From Promethearchaeota archaeon (GTDB taxonomy: Archaea > Asgardarchaeota > Lokiarchaeia > Sigyniarchaeales > SOKP01): DNA of 54,797 nucleotides. The stretch spans positions 1 to 54,797 of the forward strand of contig JAEOTP010000061.1 of the NCBI GenBank assembly GCA_016839765.1, read 5' to 3'. A model generated the notes under the pieces. The model was not told the origin of the DNA and did no database searches. It saw only the letters and a list, made by a program, of their open reading frames with translations. Within the stretch, counting starts at the first letter, position 1. Each line of letters begins with the position of its first letter. The translations under genes and the position numbers were made by a program. Positions 41,243 to 43,110 of this stretch are shown one piece after another.

Positions 41243-41343
41243 TGGGAGGAGGGGGATTTGAACCCCCGGCCCCTTGGTCCCAAACCAAGATTTACGCCGT
41301 AGAAGAACCTCTACAGAATCATACCAGGCTAGACCACCCTCCC
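41243..41343 (-). tRNA. tRNA-Pro (anticodon TGG) with an apparent intron before the anticodon stem
   Basis: Read on the minus strand: acceptor GGGAGGG pairs with TCCTCCC, D-arm GTCT...TGAT, anticodon stem CTTGG/CCAAG with loop TTTGGGA (anticodon TGG), variable GGGCC, T-arm GGGGG-TTCAAAT-CCCCC, discriminator A, CCA not encoded. Total 101 bases, whereas these parts add up to about 74. The excess of about 27 bases lies between the D-arm and the anticodon stem (41290-41317) and folds as its own hairpin CTGTAGA/TCTACGG with loop GGTTCT. This is best explained by an intron near positions 25-27; the usual archaeal site, 37/38, is not interrupted. Exact splice sites are not determined. Confidence 0.9.
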
Positions 41344-41542: not shown

Positions 41543-42100
41543 ATGAAAAAAAGAATTTTATTACTAAAAATTGGTCAAGTTGATAAGATAATTCTAGTAA
41601 ATTTGAAGAAAAATTTAGAATGGGTATTTAAGGATTTTCAAATAAAAGTTAGAATACTACCTAAAGAACTTGATTTAAACAATTCTTATTATCATCCAGA
41701 AAAAAGAAAATATAATGCAGATCGAATTATTGAAGGGATGAACGAATATCTATTAGATTATGATTTTTTTCGGGTTTTAGGAATAGTGAAGGAAGATATT
41801 TATTCAGGAACTTATAATTTCATATTTGGATGCGCTGAGAGAATAATTGCTAAAATCGCCTTAATTTCAGTGATTCGATTGAACGAAATTTTTTATAATA
41901 GAACTAAAGATAATTCTCTTTTTGAAAAAAGAATCTTAAGAGAAGCAATACATGAACTTGGTCATACTTTTGGTTTATTCCATTGTCAAGATTATTGCGT
42001 TATGAAATTTTCTAATAGTTTAATGGAAGCTGATAATAAACCAATTAGATTTTGTAAAAATTGCTTAAAAAAAGTGGAAGTATTTCTTAGTAAAACTTAA
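41543..42100 (+). CDS. amzA: Archaemetzincin, zinc metalloprotease
   Basis: 185 residues, the usual length. The extended zinc motif HELGHTFGLFH near 137 (HExxHxxGxxH) is followed by CQDYC, VM, and CKNC, the Cys set that binds a second zinc in archaemetzincins. Cytoplasmic; few substrates are known, aminopeptidase activity has been reported for human relatives. ATG 41543, no clear ribosome-binding site, so possibly leaderless. It converges on the ADP-ribosylglycohydrolase gene, with five bases between the stops. Confidence 0.95.
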   Translation: MKKRILLLKIGQVDKIILVNLKKNLEWVFKDFQIKVRILPKELDLNNSYYHPEKRKYNADRIIEGMNEYLLDYDFFRVLGIVKEDIYSGTYNFIFGCAERIIAKIALISVIRLNEIFYNRTKDNSLFEKRILREAIHELGHTFGLFHCQDYCVMKFSNSLMEADNKPIRFCKNCLKKVEVFLSKT

Positions 42101-42105
42101 TAAAA

Positions 42106-43110
42106 TCAACCATATCTATTCTTAAACTTGTCATACAAGGATTCACTAACTTTTAGAATATATTTATGATTCTTTACTAGTTTTCTTAATTCAAAAGGTA
42201 TATTTTCTAACCCAAAATAGGCTCCTGCTAAACTTCCTCCTATAGCACCAACAGTATCACTATCTCCACCTGCAGTTGCCAATTCAAAGATACATTCTTC
42301 GAATGAATCTAATCTGTGTAAAAATATGAAGATTGCGCAAGCAACTGTACTCATAGTATAGGGATGGACAAATGCTTTCCCAAAGTATTGTTCAATAAAA
42401 TAGGGAGACTTAACACCGATTTGTGAAAACTTAATCAATCCCGCATCAACTGAAATATTCAAATTCTTTTTCACTTTACGAAGGATCTCAATAAATTCTT
42501 CCCAAATATCATCTTGAGAATTAGAAATTGAAGAAATAATTACATCAAAGAACTCGTCAATAGAAAATCCTGTATTTGGGGATTTTTTTATTAAATAAGC
42601 GATAGCTCTCGCCATCACTATTGCTCCTGCTGAAGCTGCAGGGTGAGAATGAGTAATTATGCTAGATTTTAATGCGACAGTTTTTAATGCCTTTAAATTA
42701 TTACAATAAAACAAACCCACAGGAGATATTCTCATTGCTGTACCGTTTCCGCCAGAATTAGAGGCTGCTTTTTGCCAAGGAATTCCATATCTTAATTTAT
42801 GAATTGAAATCAGACATCCATACCCCGGACCAATAGGTGGGTCATCTAACCATTTTATATACTCTCTAATTAAATTATCCAAATTAAACCCCGAGCTTTG
42901 AATGAGCGCCTCAGCAGTGTGTAACGTTAATTGAGTGTCATCTGTATAAGTATTGAATAACTTCTTATGACTTTTAATAAATTCTTTAAAATCAGTAAAA
43001 TAAGAATAAATATCTTCTCGTAAAACCCCTTCAAAAGGATGCCCTAATGTATCACCTATAGCAACTCCAAATAGAGTCCCTGAGAATTTATCTAAATAAT
43101 CATTTGGCAT
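42106..43110 (-). CDS. ADP-ribosylglycohydrolase family protein (DraG-like)
   Basis: 334 residues. Magnesium-site motifs: GVAIGDTLGHPFEG at the N-terminus, YTDDTQLTL near 52 and AGGDSDTVGAIGG near 284, as in DraG/ARH enzymes that remove ADP-ribose from proteins or small molecules. ATG 43110. About 40 bases separate it from the response regulator gene upstream on the same strand, so they may share a transcript. No partner ADP-ribosyltransferase is nearby. Substrate unknown: reversing ADP-ribosylation of an enzyme, or of nucleic acid, are options. Confidence 0.92.
   Translation of the reverse strand: MPNDYLDKFSGTLFGVAIGDTLGHPFEGVLREDIYSYFTDFKEFIKSHKKLFNTYTDDTQLTLHTAEALIQSSGFNLDNLIREYIKWLDDPPIGPGYGCLISIHKLRYGIPWQKAASNSGGNGTAMRISPVGLFYCNNLKALKTVALKSSIITHSHPAASAGAIVMARAIAYLIKKSPNTGFSIDEFFDVIISSISNSQDDIWEEFIEILRKVKKNLNISVDAGLIKFSQIGVKSPYFIEQYFGKAFVHPYTMSTVACAIFIFLHRLDSFEECIFELATAGGDSDTVGAIGGSLAGAYFGLENIPFELRKLVKNHKYILKVSESLYDKFKNRYG

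What the first reader, a model, noticed from the sequence alone, without database searches (positions are those of the whole stretch)
41243..41343. tRNA-Pro(TGG) with an intron before the anticodon stem
All arms are present but about 27 extra bases with their own 7-bp hairpin lie between D-arm and anticodon stem. Archaeal tRNA introns mostly sit at 37/38; ones at other places are known mainly from Thermoproteota and imply a splicing endonuclease with broad specificity.
Basis: partly seen in the sequence, partly recalled or inferred. Interest (0 to 1): 0.58.

Follow-up and report, generated by a model that had tools for sequence, protein, structure and literature searches.

The report
Lokiarchaeal proline tRNA with noncanonical intron
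A proline tRNA gene of a Lokiarchaeota-like (Asgard) archaeon is interrupted just before its anticodon stem by a 27-base intron of the kind archaeal tRNA-splicing endonucleases remove; this is an ordinary archaeal mechanism, here in a lineage where it has been little described.

Summary
Confirmed. The minus strand of 41243-41343 holds a complete tRNA-Pro(UGG) gene with 27 extra bases between positions 25 and 26. Four cut registers give the same mature tRNA; only 25/26 makes a strict bulge-helix-bulge (4-bp central helix UAUG/CGUA, two 3-nt bulges, 8-bp inner helix). Spliced in silico, ARAGORN reads it as tRNA-Pro(tgg); unspliced, it miscalls it. A same-genus genome has a gene without the insert whose first 47 bases equal the predicted product. 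The inner helix covaries over 20 distinct introns (118 of 120 cells paired; re-dealt arms at most 107). This is the only tRNA-Pro(UGG) found in the genome. Two endonuclease subunits (one catalytic, with the crenarchaea-type loop lysine; one lacking the catalytic His) and an RtcB ligase are encoded. In the phylum sample the insert occurs only in the window's own family, and presence varies within the genus. Direct precedents exist: Pyrobaculum islandicum tRNA-Pro(UGG) has a 25/26 intron (PMC4090602), and Asgard Atabey-/Freyarchaeia have many noncanonical tRNA introns (PMC11291895). A new member of a known kind. Splicing itself is not shown by RNA data.

The parts
41243..41343 (-). pre-tRNA-Pro(UGG) gene, 101 nt; predicted mature form 74 nt
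41318..41343 (-). exon 1 (positions 1-25)
41291..41317 (-). 27-nt intron at position 25/26
   Evidence: register chosen by BHB geometry; insert-free counterpart
41243..41290 (-). exon 2 (positions 26-73)
41320..41323 (-). BHB central helix, exon strand UAUG (positions 20-23)
41293..41296 (-). BHB central helix, intron strand CGUA
41317..41319 (-). 5' bulge AU|U; predicted cut between 41318 and 41317
   Evidence: inferred from BHB geometry
41290..41292 (-). 3' bulge AA|U; predicted cut between 41291 and 41290
   Evidence: inferred from BHB geometry
41297..41316 (-). intron hairpin: 8-bp inner helix and 4-nt loop
   Evidence: covariation
41280..41282 (-). anticodon UGG

Best explanation
A functional tRNA-Pro(UGG) gene carrying a noncanonical BHB intron at 25/26. 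The transcript folds so that positions 20-23 (UAUG) pair with CGUA near the intron's 3' end. The splicing endonuclease (probably an alpha-beta heterotetramer) cuts both 3-nt bulges after their second nucleotide, and RtcB joins the exons to the 74-nt tRNA. The anatomy, conservation, insert-free counterpart and presence of the genes are shown; cleavage, ligation, cut positions and the subunit assembly are inferred.
For: All four registers 25/26 to 28/29 keep a 5-bp anticodon stem, but only 25/26 has H=4 bp directly next to an 8-bp inner helix. Over 34 distinct parsed genes (window included), 20 have a strict BHB (10 of 11 TGG, 5 of 5 CGG, 5 of 18 GGG). Inner-helix covariation: 118 of 120 cells paired versus mean 95.5 and maximum 107 in 2,000 re-dealings. 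Insert-free same-genus gene G130, identical over the first 47 nt to the predicted product. ARAGORN recognises the spliced form. Only one tRNA-Pro(UGG) found in the genome. In the window's family, 14 of 65 genomes show the UGG gene with the insert, 23 without, 0 with both, 28 undetected by either pattern (my reading). Two PF01974 genes, alpha closest to A. pernix 3p1z_B, RtcB.
Against: No RNA data. The unconstrained minimum fold is not the BHB, by 1.0 kcal/mol, and the z-score is only -1.68. Of 34 distinct genes, 9 lack a clear BHB under my rigid scoring, 8 of them GGG and 1 TGG. The D-stem is weak (G-U, U-A, C-G, then a U-U).
Confidence: 0.95

Rival explanations
1. The 27 bases are a retained expansion of the tRNA (an extra arm) that is never removed.
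For: No expression data exclude it; the hairpin is stable.
Against: The insert separates the D-arm from the anticodon stem, where no natural tRNA is known to me to keep an extra arm (recalled); it is absent in close relatives; it shows BHB geometry, with conserved pairing between exon and intron.
Confidence: 0.02
2. A decayed or pseudo copy of tRNA-Pro(UGG), the working gene lying elsewhere.
For: The assembly is 96% complete, so an unseen copy is possible.
Against: No second copy in the genome; stems intact; the same insert lies in other species' only detected UGG gene (14 of 65 family genomes; 0 of 65 with both forms).
Confidence: 0.02
3. A real intron, but with the cut register shifted by 1 to 3 nt (26/27 to 28/29), giving the same mature tRNA.
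For: The TCT direct repeat at the borders makes the four registers equal in product; tRNA-Pro(GGG) of the same genome fits 27/28 best.
Against: Only 25/26 gives the strict BHB here.
Confidence: 0.05

Closest known systems
Noncanonical 25/26 intron of Pyrobaculum islandicum tRNA-Pro(UGG) (described in PMC4090602, passages read; original Sugahara 2007 not read)
   Same: Same isoacceptor, same position, archaeal tRNA intron.
   Different: The Pyrobaculum gene has two more introns (56/57 and canonical); the host is a Thermoproteota hyperthermophile. Sequence relationship was not tested.
Noncanonical tRNA introns of Atabeyarchaeia and Freyarchaeia (PMC11291895, passages read)
   Same: Asgard archaea; introns often at noncanonical positions, more than half of the tRNA genes with several.
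   Different: Other Asgard classes; the passages read do not mention this tRNA, and the supplement was not read.
(alpha beta)2 splicing endonuclease of Aeropyrum pernix with crenarchaea-specific loop (PDB 3p1z, 3ajv; PMC6379350 passages read)
   Same: Alpha subunit alignable over nearly its whole length with the loop lysine (K44) and the catalytic His (H133) conserved; a second, His-less subunit in the genome.
   Different: Asgard host; assembly and specificity untested.

Membership tests
Archaeal BHB tRNA intron (noncanonical position) | Insert in an otherwise complete tRNA gene, outside 37/38 | tested here: met
Archaeal BHB tRNA intron (noncanonical position) | Two 3-nt bulges around a 4-bp helix at the exon-intron borders | tested here: met
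Archaeal BHB tRNA intron (noncanonical position) | Removal restores a canonical tRNA | tested here: met
   ARAGORN tRNA-Pro(tgg) on the spliced form; G130 counterpart
Archaeal BHB tRNA intron (noncanonical position) | Splicing endonuclease and ligase in the genome | tested here: met
Archaeal BHB tRNA intron (noncanonical position) | Spliced RNA observed | not testable with these tools
   no RNA data
(alpha beta)2 splicing endonuclease with crenarchaea-specific loop | Catalytic alpha subunit with Tyr, His, Lys and loop Lys (K44 of A. pernix) | tested here: met
   (loop Lys in 20 of 20 Asgard alpha genes read; not a random sample)
(alpha beta)2 splicing endonuclease with crenarchaea-specific loop | Second subunit lacking the catalytic His | tested here: met
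(alpha beta)2 splicing endonuclease with crenarchaea-specific loop | Heterotetramer cutting relaxed BHB motifs | not testable with these tools
   needs biochemistry

The most novel reading that the evidence does not exclude
Asgard archaea ancestrally had a two-subunit splicing endonuclease with the 'crenarchaea-specific' loop lysine, and Lokiarchaeia use it to remove fast-turning-over tRNA introns at many positions; the enzyme lineage behind eukaryotic TSEN may thus have had broad specificity.
Probability: 0.4. Interest if true: 0.5.

Novelty: new member of a known kind. Interest (0 to 1): 0.32.

Why it matters
It extends noncanonical tRNA introns to a Lokiarchaeal family, with insert-bearing and insert-free genes side by side in one genus, a good system for measuring intron gain and loss. 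The conserved loop lysine in Asgard alpha subunits makes a testable link between enzyme specificity and intron spread near the root of eukaryotes. A general tRNA finder miscalled the gene, so annotation of such genomes may miss or misname tRNAs.

Tried and rejected
Free-energy z-score of the whole pre-tRNA: not informative (z -1.68). Rfam at gathering threshold on the window: no hit to any family, so the unspliced gene escapes RF00005; the genome search with RF00005 (150 of 302 candidates scored) also did not list it. Literature searches with Asgard, Lokiarchae or Prometheoarchaeum plus tRNA-intron or splicing-endonuclease terms gave one paper that I found to describe Asgard tRNA introns (PMC11291895); most listed papers were judged by title and abstract start only, and GtRNAdb was not available. 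Rejected as accidental matches to the pattern: the bacterial rows, L067, and G107 and G118, whose matches come from a downstream intron or another tRNA. The Bathyarchaeota rows L068, L079, L082, L088, L116 look like another tRNA with an intron elsewhere and were not counted. In one search, 22 rows were dropped as 'no ac' (no Pro anticodon loop of 7 nt at the fixed distance from the T arm); by eye several of them (L066, L073, L122, L154, L156) are tRNA-Pro genes with an additional intron, others are other tRNAs.

Full report
Observation. On the minus strand of 41243-41343 the sequence reads as a tRNA with acceptor stem (7 of 7 pairs), D-arm, anticodon stem-loop (5 of 5, anticodon UGG), variable region, T arm (5 of 5) and discriminator A. 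Between U25 and U26 lie 27 extra bases (41317-41291). ARAGORN on the raw sequence calls it tRNA-Arg(tct), and in its intron mode tRNA-Pyl, but on the spliced form it calls tRNA-Pro(tgg). No Rfam family reaches its gathering score in the window.

BHB. A TCT repeat at the borders allows four registers with one and the same product. Only 25/26 gives a strict BHB: UAUG (positions 20-23) with CGUA, bulges AUU and AAU, and an inner helix of 8 bp immediately adjacent. In 200,000 shuffles of the intron, 1,172 gave H=4 with an inner helix of at least 4 bp in any of the four registers and 45 reached 8 bp. The unconstrained minimum free energy fold (-43.1) is a different arrangement; with the BHB enforced the best fold is -42.1, so both are accessible. 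The whole-RNA z-score is weak (-1.68).

Relatives. A pattern for tRNA-Pro with an insert after position 25 hit 98 stretches in the genome collection (84,980 species); of the 80 rows listed, 39 carry Lokiarchaeota or Lokiarchaeia titles (my count) and many others, mainly bacterial, look accidental. From these loci plus the window and L027, 36 genes parsed as complete tRNA-Pro (34 distinct; all 29 whose title was listed are Lokiarchaeota or Lokiarchaeia). Twenty of 34 have a strict BHB, 5 have a 3-of-4-bp central helix, 9 are weak under my rigid rule; 22 further rows were not parsed. Among 20 distinct introns of the 25/26 class the first six pairs of the inner helix are kept in 118 of 120 cells with several pair types, while re-dealing the 3' arms gave a mean of 95.5 and a maximum of 107. 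This class was chosen by having at least 3 pairs in both helices, which favours the observed count.

Phylum. In 227 genomes of the phylum the insert pattern matched 46; by my reading 36 are true, all in the window's family (65 genomes), 2 in that family are accidental (G107, G118), and 8 elsewhere have introns at other positions or chance matches. The pattern without insert matched 76 of 227. For UGG within the family: 14 with, 23 without, 0 with both, 28 not detected by either pattern. In the window's genus (24 genomes) UGG carries the insert in 3 (G000, G133, G137) and lacks it in 17; 4 were not detected. G130, same genus, has an insert-free gene identical to the predicted product over the first 47 bases. 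G104, G109, G110 and G115 carry a T-arm intron in the same tRNA, with or without the 25/26 one. L123, titled Lokiarchaeota archaeon Yap2000.bin6.138, matches G137 in contig length (17,692) and tRNA sequence, which is why I call the window Lokiarchaeota-like.

Uniqueness. Allowing 3 mismatches to the 17-base 5' half, the own genome has two exact hits, this gene and tRNA-Pro(GGG) on C67; all other 41 hits have 2-3 mismatches, and the reversed control pattern gives 55 hits against 43. So no second UGG gene is seen in an assembly estimated 96% complete.

Machinery. The genome has two PF01974 genes. One (L001) aligns with A. pernix 3p1z_B over residues 21-201 (E 3.1e-37), including the loop around Lys44 and the His that is Ala in the 3ajv mutant (passages of PMC6379350, name K44 and H133A). 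The other (L002) lacks the His. The loop lysine is present in 20 of 20 Asgard alpha genes (own plus 19 others that I picked from the listed best hits to span families). PF01974 was found in 194 of 195 phylum genomes, mostly in two copies. RtcB is present. According to PMC6379350 the loop lysine is needed for broad substrate specificity; a strict BHB like the window's would not require it.

Context. A simple finder over the fetched own-genome loci gave 23 distinct tRNA genes, 12 of them 91-141 nt long, which I read as having inserts; the finder demands a perfect acceptor stem and misses others. Intron-bearing tRNAs are thus common in this genome, as reported for other Asgard classes (92-95% of tRNA genes in Atabeyarchaeia and Freyarchaeia; PMC11291895). 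Pyrobaculum islandicum tRNA-Pro(UGG) has an intron at the same 25/26 place (PMC4090602).

Verdict. A real, almost certainly spliced noncanonical intron; a new member of a known kind. The less expected parts are the presence/absence variation within a genus and the crenarchaea-type loop lysine across Asgard alpha subunits. I did not find either described in the held library, but Kaneta et al. 2018 was not held and may bear on it.

Noticed in passing
L022 1501-1628 (G000:C51:104348-104475): tRNA-Trp-like gene with inserts both in the anticodon loop and in the T loop.
   Followed up: no
L023 1501-1652 (G000:C34:6686-6837): tRNA gene with several inserts, one of them in the T loop.
   Followed up: no
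L018 about 1388-1636 (G000:C15): Two tRNA genes in tandem, both with D-loop inserts.
   Followed up: no
L019 around 1501-1558 (G000:C50:75732-75789): tRNA gene whose D-arm side carries a repetitive insert of GGCTAGCT-like units.
   Followed up: no
L028 1501-1588 (G000:C34:4362-4449): 88-nt tRNA with anticodon TCA, looks like tRNA-Sec.
   Followed up: no
L240, L241, L248, L249: T-arm introns in tRNA-Pro(UGG) of related genomes, with or without the 25/26 intron.
   Followed up: partly
L001 1453-2058 and L254-L257, L259-L273: Loop lysine equivalent to A. pernix K44 in 20 of 20 Asgard alpha endonuclease subunits read.
   Followed up: partly
window 41543-42100 + and 42106-43110 -: Neighbouring genes: peptidase M54 family and ADP-ribosylglycohydrolase family.
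   Followed up: no
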